From: Patagioenas fasciata
Lineage: Eukaryota; Chordata; Aves; Columbiformes; Columbidae
Assembly (NCBI RefSeq): GCF_037038585.1
Contig: NC_092540.1
Coordinates: forward strand, 10,528,501-10,592,500
Direction: 5' to 3'
Length of the DNA: 64,000 nt
Shown: in pieces, positions 11,916 through 64,000 of the stretch
Position numbering within the stretch: the stretch's first letter is position 1
Layout of the letters: each line of letters opens with the position of its first letter
Translations under genes and position numbers: made by a program
Notes under the pieces: generated by a model
The model's database searches: none
Told to the model about the DNA's origin: nothing
What the model saw: the letters and a program-made list of their open reading frames with translations, nothing else

Positions 11916-11930
11916 GGCTGGCTCTAGCGA

Positions 11931-11945
11931 CTGCCGACTACGCCA
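11931..11945 (-). other. Primer-binding site for tRNA-Ser
   Basis: On the minus strand TGGCGTAGTCGGCAG begins two bases after the end of the 5' LTR. It is complementary to the 3' end (ending CTGCCGACTACGCCA) that I recall for vertebrate serine tRNA of the AGA type, over 15 bases including CCA. The match breaks after that. Serine-primed elements are the ERV-S group. Confidence 0.8.
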
Positions 11946-11947
11946 AA

Positions 11948-12408: not shown

Positions 12409-15400
12409 ATCCCCAAACCCTGCACCCCCGAATCCTGTCCCCAACAATGCACCCCCAAAGCCTGCACCCCAAATCCTGCCCCCCCAGCTTGCACTCTGCA
12501 CCCCCAAACCGTGCACTCCCAATCCCTGAACGCCCAAGTCCTGCACCCCCACGTCCTTAGCGCCCAAAATGTGCACCCCAGATCCTCCCCACCCAGTCCT
12601 GCACCCCTAATATTCCACCCTCTAACAATGCACCCCTAAGCCTCGCACCCTGAAACCTGCACCCCCAGGTCCTGAGTCCCCAGACCCTGCACCCCCAAAT
12701 CCCGCGCCTTTAAATCCTGTCCTCCTAAAACCCAGGACCCCCATAATTTGCCTCCCTAAACCCTGCTCCCCAAACCACTGCACCCCCAATGCAGCACCCC
12801 CAGGTCCTGAACACCCAAACCCTGCACCCCAAAACCCTGCACCCCCAAACACAGCACCCCGAAAGAATTCCCTCCCAAACCTTGCACCTCAAAGTCCTGG
12901 AAACCCAAGCCCTTCAACCCCATCCCTGCAACACCAAATCCTGTACCCCAAACCCAGCACCCCAGAATCCTGCACCCCAAGTCCGCCTACCAAACCTTTC
13001 ACTGCAAACCCCTGCACCCCAAGATTGTGCTGCCCTAAACACTGAACCCCCAAATCCTGCAGCCCCAGGTCCTTGCCTCCCAAAACTCTGCACCCCCAAA
13101 TGCTGCACCCCAAATCTCTCACCCCCAAATCCTTCCGCACAGAGTCCCAGAATGTCAGGGGTTGGAAGGGACCTGGAAAGCTCATCCGGTGCAATCCCCC
13201 CGTGGAGCAGGAACACCCAGCTGAGGTGACACAGGAAGGCCTGTACCCCACCACCCTGCACCCCCAAATCCTTCACCCCCAAACCCTGCCCCCCAAAACT
13301 CCACCCCTCCACATCCTGAACCCTGAAACCCCGCACCCCCAAATCCTCTGCCCCAATGCTCTGCACCCGTAACACTCTGCAACCTTAAACTTCCCCCCAA
13401 ACCCTGAACTCTGAAACTCTGCACCCCAAAACCCTGATCCCCCAGATTCTTTCACAAACCCTGCACCCTTGATTCCTGCACCCCCAGTTCCTGAACTCAT
13501 GAAACCTGCACCCCCAAACCCCTGCACCCCAAACCCTGCACTCTTAGACCTGACTTCTAAACCCTGCACCCCCAAACGGTGCACCCCCAAATCCTGAAGC
13601 CCCAGATCCTTCCCTCCCATACCCTGCAGCCCCAAATCCTGAACCCCCAAATCCTGCACCCCTAATCCTCCACTCTCTTAACACTGCACCCCCAAAACCT
13701 GAACCACCAAATCCTTCACCCCCAAAACCTCCCTCCTCCAAACCCTGCCCTTCAAAATGCTGCACCCCCAAATCCTTCTCCCCAACACCCTGCACCCCCA
13801 GATCCTGACCCCAAAACCCTGCACCCCAAATGCTGTACCCCAAAGCCCTGCACTCTCAAATCATACATGCCCAGAACGTGCACCCTAAACTGTGCACCCC
13901 AAAATCCTAAACCCCTTAACCCTGCACCCCCAAATCCTCCAGACCCATGTCCCGAACCCAGCACCCCAAAATCTACCCCCCAAAACCTACATCCCCAAAT
14001 CCTGCACCCCCAGGTCCTGAACACCCAAAATCTGCACCCCAATTCTGTCTCCCCAAGACCTGCACCCCCAATTCTGCCTCCAGAAGACCTTCACCCCCAG
14101 TCCCTGCTCCACTAAATCCTACACCCCCAAACCCTGCACCCCCAACCTCCTGTACCCCAAATCCTGCCCCCACAAGTTGCACCCTAAAATCCTGCACCCC
14201 AAATCCTGTCCTACCCATCCCTTCAGCCCAAACCCCTTCTCATCAAGATCCTGCTGCCCTAAACCCTGCACCCCCAAATCATCCCTCCCAGCCCTGTGCC
14301 CCAAACCCTGTCCCCCTAAAGCCTGACCCCGAAACCCTGCTCCCCAAAACCCTGCTACCCCAAACCTTGTACCCCCAGATCCTTCCCCCACACCCTGCAA
14401 TCCCAAACCCTGCACCCCCAATTCTGGCGCTAAACCCTGCACCCCCAGAACCCTGCACCACTGAACCTTGCACCCTGAAACCCTGCTCCCCCAATCCTCC
14501 CCCCCCAAAACTCTGCACCCCAAAACCCTATACCCAAAACCCTGCACCCCACAAGTTGCACCCCATATCCCTGCACCCCCAAATCCTCCAGCCATCAGGT
14601 CCTGCACCCCCAGGTGCTGAACACCTGAACCCCTCACCCCAGACCCCTCACCCCAAAGCCCTGCACCCCCAAATCCTGCCTCTAAACGCTGAACTACAAG
14701 GTTCTGTACCCCAACAGCCTGCTCACCCAGATCCTGCACCCCAGAACCCTGCACCCCCATATTCTGATCCCTACAGCCTGCAGCCCCAGCTCCTGCACCC
14801 CCAAAACCTGTACCCCTAAATCCTGCACCCTTCAACCCTGCAGCCCACAACACTGCACCCCCAACCTCTGCAGCCCCAGTTCCTTAACGTGTGAAACCTG
14901 CACCCCCAAGTCCTGCACCTCAAAACCTTACACCCGGAATCCTGCCCCCCAAACCATGCACCCCAAAATCAAGGCCCCTCAAACTTGCACTCAAAAGTCC
15001 GCACCATGAAACCCTCCCCCCCCAGTTCCTAAAGACATGGAACCTGCACCCCCAAATCCCGCACCCCAAAATCCTGCAGCCCAGTACCCCAGACCACCAA
15101 ATCTTGCACCTTCAAATCCTGCCCCCTTTAGCCCTGCACTTCAAACCCTGCACCCCAAATCCTGCAACCAAACCCTGTACCCCAAATCCTGCAACCAGCC
15201 CTTGTACCCCTAAATCCTTGACCTCCATATCCCGAATCTCCAAACGCAGCAACCCCAAAACCCTACACCCCCAATCCCTGCACCCCCAAATCATTGTCCT
15301 TCAAATCCCACACCCAACGCTCGTACACCCCAAGATCTTGCACCCCCACACACTGCACCCCAAATCCTGCATCCCCAAATCCTCCAGCCCCACGTCCCAA

Positions 15401-16237
15401 ACCCCCAAACCCTGCACCCTCAAGTCTTGCACCCCAATTCTGCCTCCCCAAGACCTGCACCCCAAACCCTGCACCACTAAACCCTGCACCCCCAAACCCT
15501 GTACCCCAAATCCTGACCCCCACAAGTTGCACCCTAAAAACCTGCACCCCAAATCCTGTCCTACCCAACCCTTCACCCCAAACCCCTTCACCCCAAGATC
15601 CTGCTGCCCTAAACCCTGCACCCCAAAATCATCCCTCCCAACCCTGCCCCCCAAACCCTGTCCCCCTAAAGCCTGACCCCTAAACCCTGCTCCCCAAAAC
15701 CCTGCTACCCCCAATCTTGCACCCCCAGATCCTGCTGCTCCAAACCCTGCACCCCCAAATCCTCCAGCCCCACGTCCCGATCTCCCAAACCCTGCACCCC
15801 AGAACCCTGCACCCCACAACCCCTTCACCCCCAAACCCTGCACCCCCAGCCCTACCCAATAAACTTTCCACCCCCAAATCCTGCCCTACCAAGCCCTCCA
15901 CCCCAAACCCCTGCACCCCAAGATCCTGCACCCTAAACCCTGCACCCCCATATCCTCCTTCCCCAAACCCTGCACCCCAAAACACTGCACTCCAAACCAC
16001 TGCACCCCTAAATCCTGCAACCCCAAATCCTGGCCCCCAAACCCGGCACCCCAAACTCCTGCACCCAAAGATCCTACTGCCCTAACCCTGAACCCCCAAA
16101 TCCTGCACCCCTGGAACCTGCAACCCCAGACCCTGTAGCCCCAAATCAAGCCCCGCAAAATCCTGCTCCCCCAGCCTTGCACCCCCAAATCCTGCACCAC
16201 CTAATCCTCCAACCCCCTAACACAACCCCCTAAACCC
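12409..16237 (+). repeat. C-rich 15-bp minisatellite array
   Basis: About 3.8 kb of diverged repeats of a unit near CCTGCACCCCCAAAT, with unit variants of 13-17 bp. The strand is strongly C-rich, so the other strand is G-rich. Divergence between units is much higher than in the 39-bp array. Some higher-order structure exists: the segment around 14205 recurs at 15555, exactly 1,350 bp (90 units) later, with the same unusual variants. The array is broken by a CR1 fragment at 13138-13240. It ends where the 39-bp repeat starts, near 16237. Open frames across it are repeat artefacts. Confidence 0.9.
13138..13240 (-). mobile_element. CR1-type LINE 3'-end fragment
   Basis: About 100 bp of non-repeat sequence inside the 15-bp array contains CAGAATGTCAGGGGTTGG, AAGGGACCT, CAATCCCCC and GGAGCAGGAACACC in order. 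These are characteristic of the 3' end of avian CR1 LINEs read on the antisense strand. The CAGAGTCCCAGAAT start is a decayed terminal octamer repeat. It is 5'-truncated, as CR1 copies usually are. Confidence 0.75.
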
Positions 16238-17731
16238 CTTGTCCCCAGGGCCCATTGTGACATCCCAGGACCCCCCTTTGTCCCCAGGGCCCATTGTGAA
16301 GTTCCAGGACCCCCTTTGTCCCCAGGGCCCATTGTTGCATCCTGGGGTCCCCCGTCATCCCCAGGGCCCATTGTGACATCCTGGGGACGCCCTTGTCCCC
16401 AGTGCCTATTGTGACATCCTGGGGACCCCCTTTGTCCCCAGGGCCCATTGTGACGTCCCAGGAACCCCCTTTGTCCCCAGGGCCCATCGTGACACCATGT
16501 GGACCCCCCTTGTCACTGGTAAGCCATTTTGACTGCATGGGGACCCCCCCTTGTCCTCAGGGCCCATTGTGACATCCTGGGCACACCTCATTGTCCCCAG
16601 GGCCCATTGTGACATCTTGGGGACCGCCTTGGGCCTCTGGCCCATTGTGGCACTGTGGGGACCCCCCTTATCACTCGGGACCCATTGTGACACCATGGGG
16701 ACCCCCTTTTTCTCCCCAGGGCCCATTGTGACATCCTGGGGACCCCCTTTGTCCCCAGGGCCCATTGTGGCACCATGGGGACCCCCTTTGTCACTGTGGC
16801 CCAATGTGACATCCCAGCACCCCACTTTGTACCCAAGACCCATTGTGACACCATGGGGACCCCCTATGTCACTGGGGCGCATTGTGACTTCCCAGGACCT
16901 CACTTTGTCCCCAGGGCCCATTGTGACATCCTGGGCACCCCCCATAGTCCCCAGGGCCCATTGTGACTTCCGGGGGACCCCCTTTGTCACCAGGGCCCAT
17001 TGTGACGTCCCAGGACCCCCCACTGTCCCCAGGGCCCATTGTGACATTCAGGGGACAGCCTTTGTCCCAAGGGCCCATTGTGACACCATCGGGACCCCCG
17101 TTGTCCCCAGGGCCCATTGTGACATCCTGGGAACCCCCTTTGTCCCCAGCGCCCATTGTGACATCCTGGGGACCCTCTTTGTCCCCAGGGTCCATTGTGA
17201 CATCCCAGGACCTCCCCTTGTCCCCAGGGCCCATTGTGACATTCAGGGGACCCCTCTTTGTCCCCAGGGCCCATTGTGACATCCTGGGGACCCCCTTTGT
17301 CCCCAGCGCCCATTGTGACACCATGGGGACCCCCTTTGTCCCCAGGGCCCATTGTGACATCCCAGGACCCCCCCTTGTCTCCAGGGCGCATTGTGACATT
17401 CAGGGGACCCCTCTTTGTCCCCAGAGTCCATTGTGACATCCTGGGGAGCTCCCTTTGTCTCCAGGGCCCATTGTGACATCCCAGGACCCCCATTTTTCCC
17501 CAGGGCCCATTGTGACATCCTGGGGACTCCCCTTTCCCCCAGGGCCTAATGTGACATCCTGGGGACTCCTCTTTGTCCCCTGGGCCCATTATGACATCCC
17601 AGGCCCCCACTTTGTCCCCAGGGCCCATTGTGACATCCTGGTGACTCCCTTTGTCCCCAGGGCCCATTGTGGCACCATGGGGACCCTCTTCGTCACTGGG
17701 GCCCATTGTGACATCCCAGGACCCCACTTTG
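16238..17731 (-). repeat. 39-bp minisatellite, inverted (C-rich) segment
   Basis: About 1.5 kb of the same 39-bp unit that fills the right of the window, here in reverse complement (CCCATTGTGACATC, then CTTTGTCCCCAGGG on the + strand). Unit variants found near 16551-16800 recur in the same order, inverted, near 24541-24128. This segment is therefore one arm of a large imperfect palindrome rather than an independent array. Confidence 0.9.
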
Positions 17732-17782
17732 TCTTAGAAGGTCACTGATCGGACTACTGGTACATCCTGACTCTGCTTTCTC

Positions 17783-17788
17783 AATAAA
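17783..17788 (+). terminator. Possible poly(A) signal exiting the satellite
   Basis: AATAAA is followed about 20 bases later by a GT-rich stretch (GGGGTTTGTTTG at about 17804-17815), the layout of a real vertebrate cleavage site. It would terminate a transcript reading rightward out of the C-rich satellite. The mirrored copy is at 21585-21580 on the minus strand. Confidence 0.4.
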
Positions 17789-18010
17789 CATTGAAGAACA
17801 CCTGGGGTTTGTTTGCTCCAAGGGAAAACTTCCCTGCCACGGTTCCTGGTTCCCGGTCCTGTTTCCCGGTCCGGTTTGGCTTCGCTATCAGAACAGCTGC
17901 TGCCTCCACAGCCGCGCTCAAAGTCCCCGTTGTGACACCGGGATGGCGGGAGAAGGGGGGTGGCGGGGGCGGCAGCGGCGGCGATTGGGGGGGGGCAGTC
18001 GGGGCTGGGC

Positions 18011-18230
18011 GGACAAGCGGCGGCTGCTGCGGCTCCTCAGGCAGCGACAGCAGCAGCGATCGGGGGGACGTGGGGGGCGGACAAGCGGCGGCTCCTGCGG
18101 CTCCTCAGGCAGCGACAGCAGCAGCGATCGGGGGGACGTGGGGGGCGGACAAGCGGCGGCTGCTGCGGCTCCTCAGGCAGCGACAGCAGCAGCGATCGGG
18201 GGGACGTGGGGGGCGGACAAGCGGCGGCTC
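18011..18230 (+). repeat. 68-bp minisatellite, left arm (three units)
   Basis: Starts of GGACAAGCGGCGGCT lie at 18011, 18079, 18147 and 18215, exactly 68 bp apart, giving three full units and a partial. Each unit contains GCAGCGACAGCAGCAGCGAT and a GGGGGGACGTGGGGG tract. Confidence 0.95.
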
Positions 18231-18857
18231 CTCCGGCCGCGCCCAGGACGTGACTTCGCCGGCACCGGGGCCCGAGACCGCGCGCTGTGGGGCTGCGGGG
18301 CGGCTGTGGGGCCGGGGGTCTCCGGGGGTCCCGCAGCGGCCGCTGTGGGGCGGGATGGGGCGGCTGTGGAATTACCTGTGGGGCACTCATGGGGCTGCTG
18401 TGGGGGTCTTAAGAGGCATGTCTGGAGCACTTATGGGGCGACTATGGGGCAGGTGCTGGGCTGCTACAGCGGGACCTGTGGGGCACCCAGGTATGTGCAC
18501 CCAGCACCGCGTGCACGCACACGCAGCTACACACTGATGTGTAAGCAAACACGTGGCCACACACACGCACACTTCCACAAGCGTGCCCAGTCCCATCTAT
18601 TGACAGAAAGACGTACGTGAAATGTACTGACATGCTTGAGGGTAAACACGTGCGTGGATGTTTGGCACACTGCACACACGCACACGTCTGAACGATGATG
18701 CTCCAGCTTTAGCATAAATGGAGCTGACATCAAGGCACTCACATGTGGACAGACCAACGTTTATGGGCACTAAGGCTTTCGCGCACAGGTTCGTCCAAGA
18801 ACAGGCACATACCTGCAGGCACCCTCCGAATGTGTGTTCTGTGCATTCTCTTAAGGG

Positions 18858-18871
18858 ACGCTAGATGGCAG
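18858..18871 (+). promoter_or_regulatory. CTCF-like motif
   Basis: ACGCTAGATGGCAG keeps the AGATGGCAG core of the CTCF consensus CCANNAGRKGGCRS but has ACG in place of CCA. It is a single weak match, noted for its position between the inverted arms. Confidence 0.25.
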
Positions 18872-19040
18872 CAAAGACCATGAAATTATTAACCTCAGTC
18901 TAACCCTAGGTTTATGACATTTTTTCTTACTATAGATGCGTTTGATGCTAAAAATTCCCCCAAATTGTAATGAATATGCGATAATTGTGTGAATACAAGC
19001 ATCGTAAGAGCATCCAGTTTTTGGAGCACTTATGGAACAT

Positions 19041-19240
19041 GATAAAGCCAGGCAGAGCCTGACAAAGCGCGACAGAGCCCAACAGGGCTTGACAGAGCCT
19101 GATAGATCTCAACAGGGGCCGACAAATCCCGACAGCGCCTGACAGCGAACAGTGGAGTCTGGCAGGGCCTGACAGAGGCTGTCACAGCACGACAGAGCCA
19201 GAGGAGCCTGACAGAGCCCAGCAAACCCGGCAGGAATAGA
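19041..19240 (+). repeat. Degenerate 10-bp minisatellite
   Basis: About 20 diverged copies of a unit near AGCCTGACAG (variants GCCCAACAGG, GCGCGACAGA, TCCCGACAGC). It appears on one side of the spacer only. Confidence 0.8.
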
Positions 19241-19445
19241 CAAGGCCTGGGTGCACAGACCTGGGTGCGTGTGGAAAGGTTTCTGCCTGTTTTCCAGTGA
19301 GGAATGGTGTGTGTGCACGTGGACAAACAGAAGGCGAAGCAACTCGGTTCCAACACTGAAGAAGGCTGTACAGTCACGTAGACACGGGGGCTGCTCCGCT
19401 CCTGCTCTCCTGCTCTCTTGCAGGACACAGAGGCCTCAGAGCCCT

Positions 19446-19470
19446 GTTCAGTTCAGTTCAGTTCAGTTCC
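19446..19470 (+). repeat. GTTCA pentanucleotide microsatellite
   Basis: Four perfect GTTCA units followed by GTTCC. Confidence 0.9.
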
Positions 19471-19559
19471 ATACAATGTTCACTGACTGCAAGAAAATCC
19501 CTCAAATCCCCCACAATGTGGGGCTCAAAAGGGAGTCCCCCTGAAAAGAGGGGGTCACA

Positions 19560-20100
19560 GTCCAAAAATGCCTGAAAATTCCTGGGGGAGGATAAAACTT
19601 ATTAAACCCTGTAAATATGAGCGTGAGAATTTCAAACAGAGAGAAGTCTGTCGTTTGTATTTATATATTGCAGAATGGTATTCATGTAGATATAAAATGA
19701 TTTTAAAATAAAACCCCTTTTCTGCTCTGTTATGTAAAGGATTTTAGAATGTAAAGAATTTCTGTTGATGGTTTTAAGAATACAAACATCTTATCTATTT
19801 GTAGATTAAAAAGTGAAGGACTTGAAAAAGAAAAAAATATCTAGATAGGAACTTAAAATAGAAAAAAGTGTGAGTAGGCAGAGCTATGTATAATTACTAC
19901 GTGTTACATAGTCTAAATAGGTAATAAATATCATCTATATATATCCACTCACACCCGTATACATACCTTTAATTTATTAATAAATGTAAATCGATATCCC
20001 AGTCTAAATATATATAATTGTAAATATGTCAAAATCTGTAAATTTGAAAAGATACCTGAGTGTTAAAATGGAAGTTTAAATGTATTTAAGTGTAAATAGA
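19560..20100. other. AT-rich block in the spacer
   Basis: About 540 bp of strongly AT-rich DNA with many TATATA, TAAATA and AAATA words lies between GC-rich flanks. No coding frame or known element was recognised. Its edge at about 20100 is where the CpG-rich segment begins abruptly. Confidence 0.6.
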
Positions 20101-20109
20101 CACTGGATC

Positions 20110-20740
20110 AGAGCGCAGCGCGGGAGAAACGGGGACGGGTGATGATAGGCGGAGAGAATGGAAATTGACGTGCTTAGCTGGCCAATCAGATTGCGGAGAG
20201 GGAAGAGAAGGGGCGGGCCGCGGGGGAGGGGTTGTCTCGAGGGCTTCCCAATGCGCATGCGCAGAAATGGGCGCTGCGAGGTGCACGGGGCGCTCTCGGC
20301 GGCCACGTGCGCGCACCGTTGGAGCCCGGAGCGGACTCGCTGCGCCGCTGTTTCTGCGAGGCCCCGGGGAGTGCCCGGCCCGGCCCCGCCCGGCCCGCTC
20401 CGCTCCGTCTCAGAGCCGCCTGGAGAGCCGGGTCGGGCAGCCCCTTCTCGGCTCCACCTCTTCCCGAGCTAAGCCACGCCCCCTTGGGGCCGTGCCATGT
20501 TGACCGCACCCTCTCCCTACCCCAAGACGCTCCTCCCATGGGGGCGTGCCCCAGAGAATGCCCACCCCCAGACCACCTCCCATGGGGCGTGACACAGAGG
20601 CTCCGCCCCCCCGAGGGGCTCCCCGTGGGCGTGCCCTCTCAGTACCCGCCCCTCGGCACTGACCCCACCCCATGTAGGCGGGGCCACACCCAGCTGCCCC
20701 CTCCCATCTGTGACCCATAACCAACCCCATAGCAGCCCTA
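20110..20740. promoter_or_regulatory. CpG-rich promoter-like segment
   Basis: A dense CpG region starts abruptly after the AT-rich block. In order it has a TTGACGT half-CRE (20165-20171), a GGCCAATCAG CCAAT box (from about 20180), a GGGGCGGGC GC box (20210-20218), a perfect NRF1 palindrome TGCGCATGCGCA (20252-20263) and a CACGTG E-box near 20303. The sequence from about 20475 to 20690 has repeated GGGCGTG or CACGCCC boxes (about 20475, 20541, 20584, 20627), typical KLF/Sp1 words. The order CCAAT, GC box, NRF1 with no TATA is that of a housekeeping-type CpG-island promoter pointing right. No recognised first exon follows, so its target is unknown. Confidence 0.55.
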
Positions 20741-21010
20741 TGGCTGCCCCACAGGTCCCGCTGTAGCAGCCCAGCACCTGCCCCATAGTCGCCCCATAAG
20801 TGCTCCAGACATGCCTCTTAAGACCCCTACAGCAGCCCCATGAGTGCCCCACAGGTAATTCCACAGCCGCCCCATCCCGCCCCACAGCGGCCGCTGCGGG
20901 ACCCCCGGAGACCCCCGGCCCCACAGCCGCCCCGCAGCCCCACAGCGCGCGGTCTCGGGCCCCGGTGCCGGCGAAGCCACGTCCTGGGCGCGGCCGGAGG
21001 AGCCGCCGCT

Positions 21011-21357
21011 TGTCCGCCCCCCACGTCCCCCCGATCGCTGCTGCTGTCGCTGCCTGAGGAGCCGCAGCAGCCGCCGCTTGTCCGCCCCCCACGTCCCCCC
21101 GATCGCTGCTGCTGTCGCTGCCTGAGGAGCCGCAGGAGCCGCCGCTTGTCCGCCCCCCCACGTCTCCCCGATCGCTGCTGCTGTCGCTGCCTGAGGAGCC
21201 GCAGCAGCCGCCGCTTGTCCGCCCCCCCACGTCCCCCCGATCGCTGCTGCTGTCGCTGCCTGAGGAGCCGCAGCAGCCGCCGCTTGTCCGCCCCCCACGT
21301 CCCCCCGATCGCTGCTGCTGTCGCTGCCTGAGGAGCCGCAGCAGCCGCCGCTTGTCC
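21011..21357 (-). repeat. 68/69-bp minisatellite, right arm (five units)
   Basis: TGTCC marks of successive units lie at 21011, 21079, 21147, 21216, 21285 and 21353, giving five units of 68 or 69 bp against three on the left arm. Two units carry one extra C in the C-tract. Confidence 0.95.
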
Positions 21358-21579
21358 GCCCAGCCCCGACTGCCCCCCCCCAATCGCCGCCGCTGCCGCC
21401 CCCGCCACCCCCCTTCTCCCGCCATCCCGGTGTCACAACGGGGACTTTGAGCGCGGCTGTGGAGGCAGCAGCTGTTCTGATAGCGAAGCCAAACCGGACC
21501 GGGAAACAGGACCGGGAACCAGGAACCGTGGCAGGGAAGTTTTCCCTTGGAGCAAACAAACCCCAGGTGTTCTTCAATG

Positions 21580-21585
21580 TTTATT
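21580..21585 (-). terminator. Mirrored possible poly(A) signal
   Basis: AATAAA on the minus strand is the inverted counterpart of 17783-17788, with the same GT-rich downstream context. It would end a minus-strand transcript coming out of the right-hand satellite toward the spacer. Confidence 0.4.
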
Positions 21586-21636
21586 GAGAAAGCAGAGTCA
21601 GGATGTACCAGTAGTCCGATCAGTGACCTTCTAAGG

Positions 21637-24600
21637 CAAAGTGGGGTCCTGGGATGTCACAAGGGGCCCCAGTGACAAAGAGGGTCCCCATGGTGCCACA
21701 ATGGGCCCTGGGGACAAAGGGAGTCACCAGGATGTCACAATGGGCCCTGGGGACAAGGGGGGTCCCACCCTGTAACAATGGGCCCTGGGGACAAAGTAGG
21801 GCCCCAGGATGTCACAATGGGCCCTGGGGACAAATGGGGTCCTGGGACGTCACAATGGGTCCTGGGGATAAAGGGGGTCCCCAGGATGTCACAATGGGCA
21901 CTTGAGACAAAGGTGGGGTCCCCATTGTGTCACAATGAGTCCCCAGTGACAAGAGGGTTCCCCATGGTGTCACAATGGGCCCTGGGGACAATTGGGGGTC
22001 CTGGGATGTCACAATGGGCCCTGAGGACAACAGGGGGTCCACACGGTGTCAAAATGGGCCCTGGTGACATATGGGGCAGCCCAGGATGTCACAATGGGCC
22101 CTGGGGACAAAGAGGGGTCCCCAGGATGTTCACAATGGGCCCTGGAGACAGTGGGGGGTCCAGAAATGTCACAATGGGCCCTGGGGACAAAGGGGGCTCC
22201 CCAGGATGTCACAATGGGCTTTGGGGACAGAGGGGGTCCCCACGGTGTCACAATGGGCCCTGGGGACAAATGGGGGTCCCCTGAATGTCACAATGCACCC
22301 TGAGGACAATGGGGGGTCCTGGGATGTCACAATGGGCCCTGGGGACACAGGGGTCCCCAGGATGTGATAATGGGTTCTGGGGACAAGTGGGGTCCCCAGG
22401 ATGTCACAATGGGCACTGGGGGGAAAGGGGTGGTCCCCATGGTGTCACAATAGGCCCAAGTGACAAGGAGGGTCCCCACGGTTCCACGATGGGCCCTGGG
22501 GACAACGGGGTCCACTGGATGTCACAATGGGCCCTGGGGACATAGGGAGGTCCTAGGATGTCACAGTGGGCCCTGGGGACAAAGTGGGGTGCCCTGAATG
22601 TCAGAATGGGACCTGGGGACAAAGGGGGTCCTGGGATGTCACAATGGGCCCCAGTGACAAAGGGGGTCCCCATGGCGTCACAATGGGCCCTGGGGACAAA
22701 GGGGGTTCCCCAAGATGTCTCAATGGGCCCTAGAGACAATGGGGAGTCCTGGAACATCACAATGGGCCCTGGGGACAAAGTGGGGTCCTGGGACGTAACA
22801 ATGTGCCCTGGGGAAAAGGGAGGGTCCCCAGGATGCAACAATGGGCCCTGGGGACAAAGTGGGGTCTCCTGAATGTCAAAATGGGCCCTGGGGACAAGGG
22901 GGGACCCCATGGTGTCACAATGGGCCCTGGGGACAAAGAGGGGTCCCCTGAACATCACAATGGGCCCTGGGGACAAAGTGGGGTACCCTGAATGTCAGAA
23001 TGGGACCTGGGCACAAAGGGGGTCCTGGGATGTCACAATGGGCTCCAGTGACAAAGGGGGTCCCCATGGTGCCAAAATGGGCCCTCAGGACAAAGTGGGT
23101 CCCCAGGATGTCACAATGGGCCCTGGGGTCAAAGGGGGTCCTGGGACGTCACAATAGGCCCTGGCGACAAAGGCGGTCCCCATGGTGTCACAATGGGCCC
23201 TGGGGACAAAGAGGGGTTGCCTGAATGTCACAATGGCCCCTGGGGACAAAGGAGGGTCCCCAGGATCTCAAAATGGGCCCTGGGGACAAGGGGGGACCTA
23301 CAATGTCCCAATAGGTTCTGGGGACTAAGGGGGTCCCCAGGATGTCACAATGGGCCCTGGGGATAACGGGGTGTCCTGGGACGTCACAATGGCCCCTGGG
23401 GATAATGGGGGATCCCCAGGGTGACACAATGGGCCCTGGGGACAATGGGGGTACCCACAGTGTCAGAACGGGCCCTGGGGAAAAAGTGGAATCCTGCAAT
23501 GTCACAATGGACCCTCAGGACAAGGGGGGGTCCCCATGGTGTCACAATGGCTCCCTAGTGACAAGGGGTTCCCCATGATGTCTTGATGGGCCCTGGGGAC
23601 AATTGGGGGGTTCTGAGATGTCACAATGGCCCCTGGGGACAATGGGGTTCCCCATGGTGCCACAATGGGCCCTGGGGACAATTGGGGGGTCCGGAGATGT
23701 TGCAATGGGCCCTGGGGACAAGGGGGCCCCCAGGATCTCACAATGGGCCGTGGGGACAAAGAGGGGTCCCCAGGATGTCACAATGGACCCTGGGGACAAT
23801 GGGGGGTCCTGGGACGTCACAATGGGCCCTGGGGAAAAAGGGTTCCCCAAAATGTCACAATGGGCCCTGGGGACAATGGGGGTCCCCAGGATTTCACAAT
23901 GGGCCCTGGGGACAACGGGGGTCCTGACGGTGTCACAATGGGCCCTTGGGCCAAAGGCTGTCCCCTGAATGTCAAAATGGGCCCTGGGGACAATGGGGTT
24001 CCCCAGGATGTCACAATGGGCTCTGGGGACCATGGGGGGTCCGGGAACGTCACAATGGGCCCTGGGGACAAGGGGGGTCCCCACGGTGTCACAATGGGTC
24101 TTGGGTACAAAGTGGGGTCCTGGGATGTCACATTGGGCCACAGTGACAAAAGGGGTCCCCATGGTGCCCCAATGGGCCCTGGGGACAAAGGGGTCCCCAT
24201 GGTGCCACAGTGGGCCCCAGTGACAAAGGGGGTCCCCACGGTGTCACAATGGGCCTTGGGTACAAACTGGGGTCCTGGGGTGTCACACTGGGCCACAGTG
24301 ACAAAAGGGGGCCCCATGGTGCCACAATGGGCCCTGGGGACAAAGGGGGTCCCCAGGATGTCACAATGGGCCCTGGGGAGAAAGAGGGGGTCCCCATGGT
24401 GTCACAATGGGTCCCGAGTGATAAGGGGGGTCCCCACGGTGCCACAATGGGCCAGAGGGACGAGGCGGTCCCCATGATGTCACAATGGGCCCTGGGGACA
24501 ATGAGGTGTGCCCAGGATGTCACAATGGGCCCTGAGGACAAGGGGGGGTCCCCATGCTGTCACAATGGGTTACCAGTGACAAGGGGGGTCCACATGGTGT

Positions 24601-26092
24601 CACGATGGGCCCTGGGGACAAAGGTGGGTCCCCATGGTGTCACAATGGACCCTGGGGACACACGGGGGTCCCTATGGTGTCACAATGGGTCCCCAGTGAC
24701 AAGTGGGGTCCTGAGATGTCACAATGGGTCTTTGGGACAAAGGGGGGTCCCCAGGATGTCACAATGGGCCCTGGGGACAGTGGGGGTCCCCATGGTGTAT
24801 ACAATGGGTCCCCAGTGACAAAGAGGGTCCCCAGGATGTCACAATGGGCCCTGGGGACAAAGGGGGTCCTGGGACTTCACAATGGGCCCTGCGTACAAGG
24901 GCGGGTCCCCAGGAGGTCACAATGGGCCCTGGGGGCAAAGGGGGCTCCTGGGATGTGACAATGGGCCCTCGAGTCAAAGGGGTGTCCCCATGGTGTCACA
25001 ATGGGCCCTGAGGACAATGGGGGGTCCTGGGATGTCACAATGGGCACTGGGAAGAAAGAGGGGTCCCCAGGGTGCCACTATGGGCCCTGGGGACAAGAGG
25101 GTCCCCAGGATATCACAATGGGCCTTGGGGACAACGAGGGTTCCGACGGTGTCACAATGTGCCCTTGGGAAAAAGGCTGTCCCCTGAATGTCACAATGGG
25201 CCCTGGGGACAATGGGGGTCCCCAGGATGTCACAATGGGCTCTGGGGAGAAAGGGGTGGTCCCCATGGTGTCACAATGGGCCCAAGTGACAAGGAGGGTC
25301 CCCATGGTTCCACGATGGGCCCTGCGGACAACGGGGTCCACCGGATGTCACAATGGGCCCTGGGGACAAAGGGAGGTCCTAGGATGTCACAGTGGGCCCT
25401 GGGGACAAAGTGGGGTCCCCTGACTGTCACAATGGGAGCTGGGGACAAAGGGGGTCCTGGGATGTCACAATGGGCCCCAGTGACAAAGGGGGTCCCCATG
25501 GTGTCACAATGGGCCATGGGGACAAAGGGGGGTCCTCGGATGCCACAATGGGCCCTCGGGACAACTGGGGGGTCCTCAGATGTCGCAATGGGCCCTGGGG
25601 ACAATGGGGGGTCCCCACGGTGCCACAATGGGTCCCCAGTGACAAGGGGAGTCCCCAGGATGTCACAATGGGCCCTGGGGAAAAAGGGGGGTCCTGGGAT
25701 GTCACAATGGGCCCTTGGGAAAAAGGCTGTCCCCTGAATGTCACAATGGGCCCTGGGGACAATGGGGGTCCCCAGGATGTCACAATGGGCTCTGGGGACA
25801 ATGGGGGGTCCTGGAATGTCACAATGGGCCCTAGGGACAAAGGTTGGTCCCCAGGTTGTCACAATGGGTCCTGGGGACAACTGGGGGTCCCCAGGATGTC
25901 ACAATGGGCCCTGGGGACAAGGGGGATACCCACGGTATCAAAATGGGCCCTGGGGACAAAGGGAGGTCCCCAGGATGTCACAATGGGCCCTGGGGATGAC
26001 GGGGGGTCCTGGGACGTCACAATGGGCCCTGGGGACAATGGGGCGTCCTGATATGTTACAATGAGCCCTGGGCACAACTGGGGGGTCCTTAG
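21637..26092 (+). repeat. 39-bp minisatellite, G-rich, first block
   Basis: About 4.45 kb of the 39-bp unit: TCACAATGGGCCC, then TGGGGACAAAGGGGG, then a variable tail such as TCCCCAGGATG, TCCTGGGACG, TCCCCATGGTG or TCCCCTGAATG. Its variant order mirrors the left array (16238-17731) with about 1.9 kb of extra sequence. The block ends in three degenerate TGGGGGGTCCTTA-like repeats before the ERVL fragment. Confidence 0.95.
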
Positions 26093-27832: not shown

Positions 27833-28192
27833 GGGACAAAGGGGGTCCTGGGATGTCACAATGGGCCCTGGGGACAAAGGGCGGTCGCCAGGATATCACA
27901 ATGGGCTCTGGTGACAATGGGGTCCCCAGGATGTCACAATGGGCCCTGGGGACAAGTTGGGGTCCCCTGAATTTCACAATGGGCCCTGGGGACAAAGAGG
28001 GCTCCCCAGCATATCACAATGGGCCCTGGGGACAATGGGGGGTCCTGGGACGTCACAATGGGCCCTGGGGACAAGGGGGGGTCCTGGGATGTCTCAATGA
28101 GCCCTGCGGACAAGGGTGGTACCCACGGTGTCACAATGGGCCCTGGGCACAACGGGGGGTCCCCATAGTGTCACAATGGGTCCTGGGGACAA

Positions 28193-31100
28193 TGGGGGGT
28201 CCTGGGACGTCACAATGGGCCCTGGGGACAAGGGGGGGTCCCCAGGATGTCACAATGGGCCCTGGGGACAAAGGGGGTCCCCAGGATGTCACAATGGGCC
28301 CTGGGGACAAAGGGGGTCCCCACGGTATCAGAATGGGCCCTGGGGACAAGGGGGGTCCCCTGAATGTCACAATGGGCCCTGGGGACAATGGGGGGTCCTG
28401 GGATGTCACAATGAGCCCTGCAGACAAGGGTGGTACCCACAGTGTCTCAATGGGCCCTGGGCACAAGGGGGGGTCCCCATAGTGTCACAATGGACCCTGG
28501 GGACAAGGGGGTGCCGAGGATATCACAATGGGCCCTGGGGACAATGGGGGGTCCTGGGACCGCACAATGGGCCCTGAGGACAACGGTGGGTCCCCTGAAT
28601 GTCAAAATGGGCCCTGGGGACAAAGGGGGGTCCGCAGGATGTCACAATGGGCACTGGGGACAAAGGGGGGGTCCCCAGGATGTCACAATGGGCCCCGGGG
28701 ACAATGTGGGGTCCTGGGATTTCACAATGGGCCCCAGTGACAAAGGGGGTCCCCTGAATGTCACAATGGGTCCTGGGGACAATGGGGGGTCCTGGGACGT
28801 CATAATGGGCCCTGGGGACAAGGGGGGGTCCCCAGGATGTCACAATGGGCCCTGGGGACAAAGAGGGGTCCCCCGAATGTCACAATGGGCCCTGGGGACA
28901 GGGGGGTGCAGTGGATGTCACAATGGGCCCTGGGGACAATGGGGGGCATCCAGGATGTCAGAATGAGTCATGAGGACAAGGGGGGGTCCCCATGGTGTCA
29001 CAATGGGTCCCCAGTGACAAGGAGGGGTCCCCATGGTGTCACAATAGGCCCTGGGGACAAAGTGGGGTCCAAGAATGTCACAATGGGCCCTGGGGACAAA
29101 AGGGGTTGCCATAGTGCCACAATGGGCCCTGGGGTCAAAGTGGGTCTCCATGGTGCTACAATGGGCCCTGGGGACAAAGGGGGGTCCTGGGATGTCACAA
29201 TGAGCCCTGGGGACAAAGGGGGTGTCCCCATGGTGCCACAACGGGCCCTGGGAGGAAGGGGATGGCCAGGATGTCACAATGGGTCCTGGGGAAAATGGGG
29301 GGTGCCCAGGATGTCACAATGGACCCTGAGGACAAGCGGGGGTCTCCATGGTGTCACAATGGGCCCCAGTGACAAAGGGGGTCCCCTGAATGTCACAATA
29401 GGTCGTGGGGACAATAGGGGGTCCTGGGACGTCACAATGGGCCCTGGGGACAAGGAGGGATCCCCAGGATGTCACAATGGGCCCTGGGGACAATGGGGGG
29501 TCCTGGGACGTCACAATGGGCCCTGGGGACAAGGGGGGGTCCCCAGGATGTCACAATGGGCCCTGGGGACAAAGAGGGGTCCCCTGAATGTCACAATGGG
29601 CCCTGGGGACAAGGGGGTGCAGAGGATGTCACGATGGGCCCTGGAGACAATGGGGGGTCCTGGGACATCACAATGGGCCCTGGGGACAAGGAGGGATCCC
29701 CAGGATGTCACAATGGGCCCTGGGGACAATGGGGGGTCCTGGGACGTCACAATGGGCCCTGGGGACAAGGGCGTGCCGAGGATGTCACAATGGGCCCTGG
29801 GGACAATGGGGGGTCCTGGGATGTCACAATGGGCCCTGGGGACAAGGTGGGGTCCCCAGGATGTCACAATGGGCCTTGGGAACAAGGGGGTCCCCCAGAT
29901 ATCACAATGGGCCCTGGGGACAATGTAAGGTCCTGGGCTGTCACAATGGACCCTGAGGACAAGGGGGGACCCCAGGATGTCACAATGAAATCTTGGGACA
30001 AAGGGGGTCCCCAGGATGTCACAATGGGCCCTGGGGACAAAGGGGGTCCCCACGGTGTCAGAATGGGCCCTGGGGACAAGGGGGGTCCCCTGAATGTCAC
30101 AATGGGCCCTGGGGACAATGGGGGGTCCTGGGATGTCACAATGAGCCCTGGGGACAAGGGTGGTACCCACGGTGTCACAATGGGCCCTGGGCACAAGGGG
30201 GGGTCCCCATAGTGTCACAATGGACCCTGGGGACAAGGGGGTGCCGAGGATGTCACAATGGGCCCTGGGGACAATGGGGGGTCCTGGGACCTCACAATGG
30301 GCCCTGAGGACAATGGTGGGTCCCCTGAATGTCAAAATGGGCCCTGGGCACAAAGGGGGGTCCGCAGGATGTCACAATGGGCATTGGGGATAAAGGGGGG
30401 GTCCCCATGGTGTCACAATGGGCCCAAGTGACAAGGAGGGTCCCCACGGTGCCACGATGGGTCCTGGGGACAAGGGCATCCCCCAGATGTCACAATGGGT
30501 CCTGGGGACAATGGGAGGCCCCAAGGTGTTCAGAACGAGCCCTGGGGACAAAGTGGAATCCTGGAATGTCACAATGGCCCCCAGTGACAAAGGGGTTCCC
30601 CATGGTGCCACAATGGGCCCTGGGGACAAAAGGGGTCCCCAGGATTTCACAATAGCACTGGGGACAAAGGGGGGTCGTGGGATGTCACAATGGGCCCTGG
30701 GGACAAGGGAGATCCCCATGGTGTCACAATAAGCCCTGGGGACAAAGGGTGGTCCTGGGACATTTAAATGGGCCCTGGGGACAAAGGGGGGACCCCAGGA
30801 TGTCACAATGGGCCCTGGGGACAAAGGGGGGTCCCCATGGTGTCACAATGGGCCCTGGGGACAAGGGGGTCCCCCAGATATCGCAATGGGCCCTGGGGAC
30901 AAAGTAAGGTCCTGGGCTGTCACAATGGACCCTGAGGACAAGGGGGGTCCCCAGGATGTCACAATGAAGTCTTGGGACAAAGGGGGCCCCCAGGATGTCA
31001 CAATGGGCCCTGGGGACCAGGGGGGGTCCTGGGACGTCACAATGGGCCCTGGGGACAAGGGGGGGTCCCCAGGATGTCACAATGGGCCCTGGGGACAAAG

Positions 31101-34100
31101 GGGGTCCCCAGGATGTCACAATGGGCCCTGGGGACAAAGGGGGTCCCCACGGTATCAGAATGGGCCCTGGGGACAAGGGGGGTCCCCTGAATGTCACAAT
31201 GGGCCCTGGGGACAATGGGGGGTCCTGGGATGTCACAATGAGCCCTGCAGACAAGGGTGGTACCCACAGTGTCTCAATGGGCCCTGGGCACAAGGGGGGG
31301 TCCCCATAGTGTCACAATGGACCCTGGGGACAAGGGGGTGCCGAGGATATCACAATGGGCCCTGGGGACAATGGGGGGTCCTGGGACCGCACAATGGGCC
31401 CTGAGGACAACGGTGGGTCCCCTGAATGTCAAAATGGGCCCTGGGGACAAAGGGGGGTCCGCAGGATGTCACAATGGGCACTGGGGACAAAGGGGGGGTC
31501 CCCAGGATGTCACAATGGGCCCCGGGGACAATGTGGGGTCCTGGGATTTCACAATGGGCCCCAGTGACAAAGGGGGTCCCCTGAATGTCACAATGGGTCC
31601 TGGGGACAATGGGGGGTCCTGGGACGTCATAATGGGCCCTGGGGACAAGGGGGGGTCCCCAGGATGTCACAATGGGCCCTGGGGACAAAGAGGGGTCCCC
31701 CGAATGTCACAATGGGCCCTGGGGACAGGGGGGTGCAGTGGATGTCACAATGGGCCCTGGGGACAATGGGGGGCATCCAGGATGTCAGAATGAGTCATGA
31801 GGACAAGGGGGGGTCCCCATGGTGTCACAATGGGTCCCCAGTGACAAGGAGGGGTCCCCATGGTGTCACAATAGGCCCTGGGGACAAAGTGGGGTCCAAG
31901 AATGTCACAATGGGCCCTGGGGACAAAAGGGGTTGCCATAGTGCCACAATGGGCCCTGGGGTCAAAGTGGGTCTCCATGGTGCTACAATGGGCCCTGGGG
32001 ACAAAGGGGGGTCCTGGGATGTCACAATGAGCCCTGGGGACAAAGGGGGTGTCCCCATGGTGCCACAACGGGCCCTGGGAGGAAGGGGATGGCCAGGATG
32101 TCACAATGGGTCCTGGGGAAAATGGGGGGTGCCCAGGATGTCACAATGGACCCTGAGGACAAGCGGGGGTCTCCATGGTGTCACAATGGGCCCCAGTGAC
32201 AAAGGGGGTCCCCTGAATGTCACAATAGGTCGTGGGGACAATAGGGGGTCCTGGGACATCACAATGGGCCCTGGGGACAAGGAGGGATCCCCAGGATGTC
32301 ACAATGGGCCCTGGGGACAATGGGGGGTCCTGGGACGTCACAATGGGCCCTGGGGACAAGGGGGGGTCCCCAGGATGTCACAATGGGCCCTGGGGACAAA
32401 GAGGGGTCCCCTGAATGTCACAATGGGCCCTGGGGACAAGGGGGTGCAGAGGATGTCACGATGGGCCCTGGAGACAATGGGGGGTCCTGGGACATCACAA
32501 TGGGCCCTGGGGACAAGGAGGGATCCCCAGGATGTCACAATGGGCCCTGGGGACAATGGGGGGTCCTGGGACGTCACAATGGGCCCTGGGGACAAGGGGG
32601 GGTCCCCAGGATGTCACAATGGGCCCTGGGGACAAAGAGGGGTCCCCTGAATGTCACAATGGGCCCTGGGGACAAGGGGGTGCAGAGGATGTCACGATGG
32701 GCCCTGGAGACAATGGGGGGTCCTGGGACATCACAATGGGCCCTGGGGACAAGGAGGGATCCCCAGGATGTCACAATGGGCCCTGGGGACAATGGGGGGT
32801 CCTGGGACGTCACAATGGGCCCTGGGGACAAGGGCGTGCCGAGGATGTCACAATGGGCCCTGGGGACAATGGGGGGTCCTGGGATGTCACAATGGGCCCT
32901 GGGGACAAGGTGGGGTCCCCAGGATGTCACAATGGGCCTTGGGAACAAGGGGGTCCCCCAGATATCACAATGGGCCCTGGGGACAATGTAAGGTCCTGGG
33001 CTGTCACAATGGACCCTGAGGACAAGGGGGGACCCCAGGATGTCACAATGAAATCTTGGGACAAAGGGGGTCCCCAGGATGTCACAATGGGCCCTGGGGA
33101 CAAAGGGGGTCCCCACGGTGTCAGAATGGGCCCTGGGGACAAGGGGGGTCCCCTGAATGTCACAATGGGCCCTGGGGACAATGGGGGGTCCTGGGATGTC
33201 ACAATGAGCCCTGGGGACAAGGGTGGTACCCACGGTGTCACAATGGGCCCTGGGCACAAGGGGGGGTCCCCATAGTGTCACAATGGACCCTGGGGACAAG
33301 GGGGTGCCGAGGATGTCACAATGGGCCCTGGGGACAATGGGGGGTCCTGGGACCTCACAATGGGCCCTGAGGACAATGGTGGGTCCCCTGAATGTCAAAA
33401 TGGGCCCTGGGCACAAAGGGGGGTCCGCAGGATGTCACAATGGGCATTGGGGATAAAGGGGGGGTCCCCATGGTGTCACAATGGGCCCAAGTGACAAGGA
33501 GGGTCCCCACGGTGCCACGATGGGTCCTGGGGACAAGGGCATCCCCCAGATGTCACAATGGGTCCTGGGGACAATGGGAGGCCCCAAGGTGTTCAGAACG
33601 AGCCCTGGGGACAAAGTGGAATCCTGGAATGTCACAATGGCCCCCAGTGACAAAGGGGTTCCCCATGGTGCCACAATGGGCCCTGGGGACAAAAGGGGTC
33701 CCCAGGATTTCACAATAGCACTGGGGACAAAGGGGGGTCGTGGGATGTCACAATGGGCCCTGGGGACAAGGGAGATCCCCATGGTGTCACAATAAGCCCT
33801 GGGGACAAAGGGTGGTCCTGGGACATTTAAATGGGCCCTGGGGACAAAGGGGGGACCCCAGGATGTCACAATGGGCCCTGGGGACAAAGGGGGGTCCCCA
33901 TGGTGTCACAATGGGCCCTGGGGACAAGGGGGTCCCCCAGATATCGCAATGGGCCCTGGGGACAAAGTAAGGTCCTGGGCTGTCACAATGGACCCTGAGG
34001 ACAAGGGGGGTCCCCAGGATGTCACAATGAAGTCTTGGGACAAAGGGGGCCCCCAGGATGTCACAATGGGCCCTGGGGACCAGGGGGGGTCCTGGGACGT

Positions 34101-36181
34101 CACAATGGGCCCTGGGGACAAGGGGGGGTCCCCAGGATGTCACAATGGGCCCTGGGGACAAAGGGGGTCCCCAGGATGTCACAATGGGCCCTGGGGACAA
34201 AGGGGGTCCCCACGGTATCAGAATGGGCCCTGGGGACAAGGGGGGTCCCCTGAATGTCACAATGGGCCCTGGGGACAATGGGGGGTCCTGGGATGTCACA
34301 ATGAGCCCTGCAGACAAGGGTGGTACCCACAGTGTCTCAATGGGCCCTGGGCACAAGGGGGGGTCCCCATAGTGTCACAATGGACCCTGGGGACAAGGGG
34401 GTGCCGAGGATATCACAATGGGCCCTGGGGACAATGGGGGGTCCTGGGACCGCACAATGGGCCCTGAGGACAACGGTGGGTCCCCTGAATGTCAAAATGG
34501 GCCCTGGGGACAAAGGGGGGTCCGCAGGATGTCACAATGGGCACTGGGGACAAAGGGGGGGTCCCCAGGATGTCACAATGGGCCCCGGGGACAATGTGGG
34601 GTCCTGGGATTTCACAATGGGCCCCAGTGACAAAGGGGGTCCCCTGAATGTCACAATGGGTCCTGGGGACAATGGGGGGTCCTGGGACGTCATAATGGGC
34701 CCTGGGGACAAGGGGGGGTCCCCAGGATGTCACAATGGGCCCTGGGGACAAAGAGGGGTCCCCCGAATGTCACAATGGGCCCTGGGGACAGGGGGGTGCA
34801 GTGGATGTCACAATGGGCCCTGGGGACAATGGGGGGCATCCAGGATGTCAGAATGAGTCATGAGGACAAGGGGGGGTCCCCATGGTGTCACAATGGGTCC
34901 CCAGTGACAAGGAGGGGTCCCCATGGTGTCACAATAGGCCCTGGGGACAAAGTGGGGTCCAAGAATGTCACAATGGGCCCTGGGGACAAAAGGGGTTGCC
35001 ATAGTGCCACAATGGGCCCTGGGGTCAAAGTGGGTCTCCATGGTGCTACAATGGGCCCTGGGGACAAAGGGGGGTCCTGGGATGTCACAATGAGCCCTGG
35101 GGACAAAGGGGGTGTCCCCATGGTGCCACAACGGGCCCTGGGAGGAAGGGGATGGCCAGGATGTCACAATGGGTCCTGGGGAAAATGGGGGGTGCCCAGG
35201 ATGTCACAATGGACCCTGAGGACAAGCGGGGGTCTCCATGGTGTCACAATGGGCCCCAGTGACAAAGGGGGTCCCCTGAATGTCACAATAGGTCGTGGGG
35301 ACAATAGGGGGTCCTGGGACGTCACAATGGGCCCTGGGGACAAGGAGGGATCCCCAGGATGTCACAATGGGCCCTGGGGACAATGGGGGGTCCTGGGACG
35401 TCACAATGGGCCCTGGGGACAAGGGGGGGTCCCCAGGATGTCACAATGGGCCCTGGGGACAAAGAGGGGTCCCCTGAATGTCACAATGGGCCCTGGGGAC
35501 AAGGGGGTGCAGAGGATGTCACGATGGGCCCTGGAGACAATGGGGGGTCCTGGGACATCACAATGGGCCCTGGGGACAAGGAGGGATCCCCAGGATGTCA
35601 CAATGGGCCCTGGGGACAATGGGGGGTCCTGGGACGTCACAATGGGCCCTGGGGACAAGGGCGTGCCGAGGATGTCACAATGGGCCCTGGGGACAATGGG
35701 GGGTCCTGGGATGTCACAATGGGCCCTGGGGACAAGGTGGGGTCCCCAGGATGTCACAATGGGCCTTGGGAACAAGGGGGTCCCCCAGATATCACAATGG
35801 GCCCTGGGGACAATGTAAGGTCCTGGGCTGTCACAATGGACCCTGAGGACAAGGGGGGACCCCAGGATGTCACAATGAAATCTTGGGACAAAGGGGGTCC
35901 CCAGGATGTCACAATGGGCCCTGGGGACAAAGGGGGTCCCCACGGTGTCAGAATGGGCCCTGGGGACAAGGGGGGTCCCCTGAATGTCACAATGGGCCCT
36001 GGGGACAATGGGGGGTCCTGGGATGTCACAATGAGCCCTGGGGACAAGGGTGGTACCCACGGTGTCACAATGGGCCCTGGGCACAAGGGGGGGTCCCCAT
36101 AGTGTCACAATGGACCCTGGGGACAAGGGGGTGCCGAGGATGTCACAATGGGCCCTGGGGACAATGGGGGGTCCTGGGACG
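28193..36181 (+). repeat. Higher-order repeat of about 2.83 kb, three copies
   Basis: Copies start near 28193, 31020 and 34083. The offset is 2,827 bp between copies 1 and 2, and 3,063 bp between 2 and 3. The longer middle copy contains an extra 236-bp (six-unit) internal duplication (32415 recurs at 32651). The third copy stops near 36181. Copies are almost identical. One visible difference is GGGACG at about 29436 versus GGGACA in the middle copy. Confidence 0.9.
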
Positions 36182-54100: not shown

Positions 54101-54439
54101 GGGGGGTCCCCATAGTGTCACAATGGGTCCTGGGGATAAGTGGGGTCCACAGGATGTCACAATGGGCCCTGGGGACAATGTGGGGTCCCCTGAATGTCAC
54201 AATGGGCCCTGTGGAGAAGGGGGTGCCGAGGATGTCACAATGGGCCCTGGGGACAATGGGGGTCCCCTGAATGTCAAAATGGGCCCTGGGGACAAGGAGG
54301 GATTCCCAGGATGTCACAATGGGCCCTGGAGACAAGGGGATGTCCCCAGGATGTCACAATGGGCCCTGGGGACAATGCGGGGTCCTGGGACGTCACAATG
54401 GGCCCTGGGGACAAGAGGGGGTCCCCAGGATGTCACAAT

Positions 54440-63924: not shown

Positions 63925-64000
63925 CCCCACGGTATCAGAATGGGCCCTGGGGACAAAGGGGGTCCCCTGAATGTCACAATGGGCCCTGGGGACAGTGGGG

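What the first reader, a model, noticed from the sequence alone, without database searches (positions are those of the whole stretch)
16238..26092. Satellite strand-switch at a GC-rich inverted repeat: a ~10-kb imperfect palindrome
The 39-bp minisatellite is C-rich on the + strand left of 17731 and G-rich right of 21637. The switch occurs at two GC-rich arms that are inverted copies of each other around a 2.26-kb spacer. Variant order in the left array (for example 16551-16800) recurs inverted at 24541-24128, so the whole structure was once symmetrical. Such a turnaround could arise by fold-back replication or break-induced template switching, and could act as an amplification centre or a bidirectional transcription unit.
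Basis: partly seen in the sequence, partly recalled or inferred. Interest (0 to 1): 0.75.

Follow-up and report, generated by a model that had tools for sequence, protein, structure and literature searches.

The report
Mirror-image satellite nodes in bird genome
A bird genome carries hundreds of near-identical copies of a four-kilobase mirror-image DNA segment at which long repeat arrays reverse direction, so the turnaround seen here is one node of a genome-wide pattern rather than a local accident.

Summary
In detail: arms 17612-18489 and 21756-20741 match at 872 of 878 aligned bases around a 2,251-bp spacer, and the 39-bp satellite changes strand there. The reading changes: this is not a one-off fold-back. 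Genome-wide pattern counts give 264 spacer copies and 620 arm ends, 311 on + and 309 on -. In 20 of 20 other copies fetched (the best-scoring ones), the G-rich strand again reads outward on both sides. The outer 39-bp/15-bp junction is also conserved (686 matches), and a second, convergent node, 'core 2' (one copy read, 814 bp), has 226 matches. I read the window as one divergent node of a two-node satellite lattice, amplified as a unit in a bird, probably not a galliform. Core 2 resembles a promoter with first exon and the arms carry poly(A)-signal-like ends, so the arrays may be the intron of a multicopy non-coding gene; this is inferred, no RNA was seen. 'Once symmetrical' is not supported: the two array sides of one core share fewer variants than random pairs.

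The parts
12411..16216 (.). 15-bp degenerate minisatellite, C-rich on + (unit like CCCCAAACCCTGCAC)
16180..16250 (.). outer junction 15-bp to 39-bp array, conserved: 686 genome matches to a 34-mer at up to 3 mismatches
16235..17733 (.). left 39-bp array, C-rich on +, ~38 units
17612..18489 (+). left inverted arm; its first 122 bp lie inside the array
17783..17788 (+). AATAAA followed by a GT-rich stretch; mirrored in the right arm (poly(A)-site-like, inferred)
   Evidence: sequence
18007..18237 (.). 68-bp repeats of left arm (3.4 copies)
18490..20740 (+). spacer, 98-99% identical to the window in the 20 fetched copies; 264 genome matches to a 33-mer at up to 2 mismatches
19053..19234 (-). decamer stretch related to a third satellite seen in L029 (score 53.5, shuffles 19.8 sd 2.4)
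20110..20450 (.). CpG-island, promoter-like: GGCCAATCAG 20180, GGGGCGGGCC 20210, GCGCATGCGC 20253 (motif meanings recalled)
20741..21756 (-). right inverted arm, its outer end inside the array
20993..21361 (.). 68-bp repeats of right arm (5.4 copies)
21637..26077 (.). right 39-bp array, G-rich on +, ~113 units
27833..63994 (.). continuation of G-rich array beyond a retroviral insertion, ~922 units; G4 motifs 5.3 per kb on +, none on -

Best explanation
The finding is one copy of a dispersed, co-amplified satellite lattice in a bird. A divergent node, core 1 (17734-21636), has two 0.7-1.6 kb inverted arms around a 2.25-kb spacer and throws a 39-bp minisatellite outward on both sides, G-rich strand outward. 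Further out the array changes to a 15-bp minisatellite at a fixed junction, and a second, convergent node (core 2, 814 bp in the one copy read) can close the unit. Shown: core 1 and its polarity, the junction, copy numbers, near-identity on many contigs, and one core 2 read in full with its matches elsewhere. Inferred: an old inverted duplication of the 3' end of a transcription unit (promoter and first exon in core 2, 15-bp and 39-bp repeats as intron, poly(A) end in the core-1 arm) made the turnaround once; unequal exchange and gene conversion between heterochromatic regions then copied it. Unequal exchange changed the arrays independently on each side.
For: Strand switch in 20 of 20 other copies plus the window. 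Arm ends balanced 311/309; among 100 listed, 32 neighbours are + then - within 8 kb (3.65-4.82 kb apart), and the single - then + pair (7.3 kb) is the gap between two neighbouring cores; the other listed ends had no listed partner that close. Arms differ by whole multiples of 68 bp in 16 of 19 copies compared. 19 spacers differ pairwise by 0.69% on average; 133 of 300 pairs of informative sites fail the four-gamete test, as expected with exchange between copies. Arrays travel with the core by side: 31 of 5000 permutations as strong. Grammar: of 100 listed junctions, the first node on the 15-bp side is core 2 in 58 and core 1 in 3; on the 39-bp side core 1 in 11 and core 2 in 4. Core-2 exon strand faces the nearest core 1 in 19 of 26. 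CpG transition columns in core 1 are only 1.9 times those of other C/G (11 of 270 vs 26 of 1215), suggesting little germline methylation, while the array has CpG o/e 0.04-0.17.
Against: No RNA, chromatin or replication data. Of 100 listed junctions, 39 on the 15-bp side and 85 on the 39-bp side have no node within 25 kb or another junction first. C3, C8, C10 and C12 show junctions and core 2 but no listed core 1 or arm end; the lists show only the best matches, 100 each. Core 2 faces away from the nearest core 1 in 7 of 26, and 14 of the 40 examined have no known core 1 within 40 kb; six of the 19 facing it are one series on C28. In L031 a 39-bp array abuts a reversed 15-bp array with no core 2; L018 has a convergent switch with no node. 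The core-2 donor pointing the right way (8.4 bits, top 1.1% of background GTs) is beaten by one on the other strand (8.9), and the acceptor at the arm junction is weak. L027 and L028 lack most of one outer arm, poly(A) signal included. The two exon-like pieces show no evident reading frame (read by eye). CpG counts are small, and A/T columns vary nearly as much as CpG ones (43 of 1282 with a transition).
Confidence: 0.6

Rival explanations
1. Foldback-type DNA transposon (Tetris/FB/TU-like): the arms and outer arrays are its long terminal inverted repeats with internal tandem repeats, moved by a transposase supplied elsewhere.
For: Long inverted ends with internal repeats of variable number; hundreds of near-identical copies; Tetris in D. 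virilis fed a satellite this way (PMC4079207, abstract).
Against: All 20 fetched cores lie inside 39-bp arrays; the array changes strand across the core, which insertion of the core into one array would not give; no Pfam hit in the core ORFs tested (2 of the 35 listed). If the arrays belong to the element, its outer ends and target duplications were not read.
Confidence: 0.15
2. Replication-polarity filter: core 1 is a replication origin, and arrays survive only with the G-rich strand outward, so that the G4-forming strand is never the leading-strand template. Not exclusive of the best explanation.
For: Array strand flips the same way at the window and 20 of 20 copies; GC skew turns from negative to positive between the left and right arrays of the window, C33 and C32 cores; G4 motifs in the window's arrays only on the outward strand; in yeast the 39-nt G-rich CEB1 minisatellite is studied as unstable with its G-rich strand as leading template near ARS305 (PMC5491262, passages); CpG-island core.
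Against: No origin mapping; outward polarity also follows from copying one ancestral inverted unit; the convergent core 2 needs its own account.
Confidence: 0.2
3. Local fold-back or break-induced template switch at this locus.
For: Near-perfect arms; inverted shared variant block.
Against: Same module at hundreds of places; two sides of one core not specially alike.
Confidence: 0.03
4. (Peri)centromeric macro-dyad with a structural role, as proposed for Tribolium satellites.
For: Inverted subarrays with conserved inversion sites; listed cores lie towards one end of C28, C29, C32 and C33, whose lengths are known.
Against: On C36 and C49 cores are spread along the contig; junctions and core 2 also lie inside a large contig (C3 at 11.7 and 13.3-13.4 of 126 Mb); the node is a promoter-like 4-kb core, not a diverged monomer; no CENP-A data.
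Confidence: 0.12

Closest known systems
Tribolium satDNA macro-dyad symmetries (TmSat1/TmSat2; PMC13081366, abstract and passages)
   Same: Kilobase-scale satellite subarrays in opposite orientation around conserved inversion sites, on many chromosomes or contigs.
   Different: For TmSat1 there the inversion site is a diverged satellite subunit; here it is a 3.9-kb GC-rich core with its own inverted arms, plus a second distinct convergent node. The paper says such symmetries were documented only in Tribolium.
Tetris foldback transposon, Drosophila virilis (PMC4079207, abstract and outline)
   Same: Long inverted repeats with internal tandem repeats linked to satellite arrays.
   Different: No transposase, target-site duplication or insertion outside satellite found here; array strand flips across the core.
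Testis-expressed amplicons in chicken pericentromeric heterochromatin (PMC9974502, passages and section 9)
   Same: Multicopy genes or lncRNAs amplified in satellite-rich regions of small avian chromosomes.
   Different: No expression known here; inverted two-node layout not described in the passages I read.
Human CEB1 G-rich minisatellite (PMC5491262, passages)
   Same: 39-nt, G-rich, strongly skewed, G4-prone unit.
   Different: No sequence relation tested; here arranged divergently at hundreds of loci.

Membership tests
satDNA macro-dyad symmetry (Tribolium type) | Long subarrays in opposite orientation | tested here: met
   20 of 20 fetched copies plus the window
satDNA macro-dyad symmetry (Tribolium type) | Conserved inversion sites | tested here: met
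   Spacers 98-99% identical in 20 copies; 264 matches
satDNA macro-dyad symmetry (Tribolium type) | Inversion site is a diverged satellite subunit (as for TmSat1) | tested here: not met
   Best 39-bp-unit match in the core scores 18 vs shuffles 16.7 sd 1.7, maximum 20
satDNA macro-dyad symmetry (Tribolium type) | (Peri)centromeric location | tested here: inconclusive
   Towards one end on C28, C29, C32, C33, spread on C36 and C49; centromeres not known
Foldback transposon | Long TIRs with internal tandem repeats | tested here: met
   68-bp repeats in arms, whole-unit length differences in 16 of 19 copies
Foldback transposon | Insertion at unrelated sites with target-site duplication | tested here: inconclusive
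   All 20 fetched cores inside the 39-bp array; outer ends of whole units not read
Foldback transposon | Transposase in some copy | tested here: inconclusive
   2 core ORFs of the window scanned in Pfam, no hit; other copies not scanned
Avian heterochromatin amplicon | Germline expression | not testable with these tools
   No RNA data held
CNM / PO41 avian satellites | 41-bp unit sequence | not tested
   Unit here is 39 bp; no CNM or PO41 sequence was compared

The most novel reading that the evidence does not exclude
The arrays are the intron of a gene-like transcription unit present in hundreds of copies: core 2 is the promoter and first exon, the 15-bp and 39-bp repeats are the intron, and the inverted arms of core 1, whose CpGs look unmethylated in the germline, are shared terminators that take transcripts from both sides. 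Transcription and replication polarity keep every array G-rich outward from core 1, and the nodes move between chromosomes by gene conversion: a self-propagating two-node satellite gene.
Probability: 0.25. Interest if true: 0.88.

Novelty: new variant of a known kind. Interest (0 to 1): 0.7.

Why it matters
Why satellites keep or reverse strand over long distances is open. Here the strand is set by two recurrent, sequence-defined nodes that look like a promoter and a terminator, in hundreds of copies, so the roles of transcription, replication direction and recombination in satellite polarity become testable in one species. The cited Tribolium paper regards array-level mirror symmetry as so far documented only in that beetle genus.

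Tried and rejected
Satellite inside a working dynein intron: exons at 1989-8376 best match DNAH9 up to about residue 2452, but none of 58 Dynein_C matches lies on contig C28, so the gene piece looks truncated. The core as seed of the 39-bp or 15-bp unit: matches no better than shuffles. Alternating orientation of neighbouring cores: the contigs were grouped after looking and the list was incomplete, so I do not use as a test. Rfam: no match at gathering threshold in 1-30000. Print: no text in the held PMC library holds any of four 14-17-mers of the unit. Total satellite amount: the unit-count search did not complete.

Full report
What is there. The window is contig C28:10528501-10592500 of a 1.454-Gb genome in 359 contigs. 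The organism is a bird: 150 scored feather-keratin matches, the best-scoring 90% identical to a recalled chicken sequence. A galliform is doubtful, because the only match to hen lysozyme is 54% over residues 22-90; a gene missing from the assembly cannot be excluded. The 39-bp array is C-rich at 16235-17733, G-rich at 21637-26077 and again at 27833-63994 after a retroviral insertion. The arms match at 872 of 878 aligned bases and differ by about two 68-bp units.

It is not unique. The first whole-module search scored 33 near-full copies at 94-100% identity, the window included, and the spacer search 40 at 98-100%; both are lower bounds. Pattern counts, which the tool calls whole, give 264 spacer 33-mers at up to 2 mismatches (105 +, 159 -), 620 arm ends at up to 3 (311 +, 309 -), 686 outer junctions at up to 3 (359 +, 327 -) and 226 core-2 34-mers at up to 3 (102 +, 124 -); each reversed-pattern control gave 0. 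Only 100 places of each list are shown, best matches first, so positional statements rest on those.

The switch is constant. In 20 of 20, and in the window, C-rich array lies left and G-rich array right of the core, so the G-rich strand reads outward on both sides. Two pairs are near-identical including flanks (L010/L011, L013/L016), so I left L011 and L016 out of later statistics, which use 18 loci plus the window. L021/L026 are also alike on both flanks and were kept, which adds to the same-side value below. The stretch between two cores 11.7 kb apart on C28 shows the same polarity: core, 39-bp G-rich, abrupt change, 15-bp C-rich, 39-bp C-rich, core. Arms in 16 of 19 copies differ by whole multiples of 68 bp; L024 (an extra duplication) and L027 and L028 (one outer arm mostly missing) depart.

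How far the mirror goes. At 34 of 37 other ends the first 100 bp of array is 94-100% like the window's left end (exceptions L022_B, L027_B, L028_B); beyond it the order of variants differs. Array sides of one core share a mean of 113 50-mers beyond 150 bp, against 226 (sd 65) for random A-B pairings; 136 of 5000 pairings were as low. Same-side arrays of different cores share more than opposite sides by 151 (31 of 5000 permutations). Some opposite-side sharing exists (L014_B with L021_A and L026_A), as exchange or inversion through the arms would give.

Outer edge and second node. The 39-bp to 15-bp junction is the same in the window, L012, L013 and L020 and at both ends of L032. On C3, where three '- then +' junction pairs lie 9.77 kb apart, one pair was read: 39-bp G-rich, 15-bp G-rich, an 814-bp GC-rich core 2, 15-bp C-rich, 39-bp C-rich. 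Core 2 ends in mirrored GGGGTGATCACTGC. It holds a stretch that I recognise as CR1-like from memory, a CCAAT box and GC boxes (names recalled), and a donor-like AGG|GTGAGA pointing into the C-rich arrays. L012 has what looks like a collapsed core 2. Of 100 listed junctions, the first node within 25 kb on the 15-bp side is core 2 in 58, core 1 in 3, none or another junction first in 39; on the 39-bp side core 1 in 11, core 2 in 4, none or another junction first in 85. Six of the 19 are one series on C28, so they may not be independent.

Spread. 19 spacers differ by 0.69% on average (0.27-1.11%); 133 of 300 pairs of informative sites fail the four-gamete test, which recombination or gene conversion between copies explains best. 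Columns with a transition at CpG sites of core 1 are 11 of 270 against 26 of 1215 other C/G columns and 43 of 1282 A/T columns; the 1.9-fold excess over other C/G suggests weak germline methylation in the core, while the array has CpG o/e of 0.04-0.17. Numbers are small. Listed cores lie towards one end of C28, C29, C32 and C33, whose lengths are known, but are spread along C36 and C49. Neighbours are a median of 200 kb apart in a list that is incomplete, so the true spacing is shorter.

How it may work. The strand that runs inward to core 1 is C-rich and, in the window, ends in each arm at AATAAA followed by GT-rich DNA. The 39-bp units before 17622 and 17661 hold acceptor-like sites, top 0.1% and 0.7% of background; the donor in core 2 is in the top 1.1%, but a donor on its other strand scores higher, and the acceptor at the arm junction is weak (weights recalled). 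This gives a possible direction from core 2 through both arrays to the core-1 arm. It is inference: no RNA was available, and the exon-like pieces show no evident frame. An origin-polarity filter acting on G4-prone arrays is compatible with it.

Comparison. Tribolium macro-dyads are the closest layout, and their authors state that such symmetries were documented exclusively in that genus (PMC13081366, abstract and passages). Tetris is the closest foldback precedent (PMC4079207, abstract and outline). Chicken heterochromatin amplicons are the closest avian setting (PMC9974502, passages and section 9). A review of satellites from transposable elements was seen in passages (PMC9659126). My paper searches covered only the held library.

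Noticed in passing
1989-8376: Dynein heavy chain exons, closest to DNAH9 residues 2202-2452; no Dynein_C match on the same contig, so apparently a truncated gene copy beside the satellite.
   Followed up: partly
8448-12412: Retroviral-looking element on the - strand between 465-bp direct repeats 99.1% identical, without an evident matching target duplication: left flank is gene, right flank is 15-bp satellite. May mark a recombination joint.
   Followed up: partly
26119-26802: Retroviral integrase piece (PF00665) interrupting the 39-bp array; a very similar frame, compared by eye, in L030 beside the 15-bp array.
   Followed up: no
27833-63994: Tandem duplications of 4223, 3063 and 2827 bp inside the 39-bp array, seen as spacings of exact 60-mers.
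   Followed up: no
L029:1-7735: Third satellite, CCTGTCGGGTTTGCTCGGGC (20/40/100 bp), related to the decamers inside the spacer at 19053-19234.
   Followed up: partly
own genome C22:10.44-12.00 Mb: Five near-identical Dynein_C exon sets about 374-397 kb apart: a tandemly amplified dynein gene or an assembly duplication.
   Followed up: no
L018:7395: Convergent 39-bp strand switch with no node.
   Followed up: no
own genome C8, C10, C12: '+ then -' junction pairs 11-23 kb apart with no listed core 1 or arm end: array turnarounds that may have another centre.
   Followed up: no
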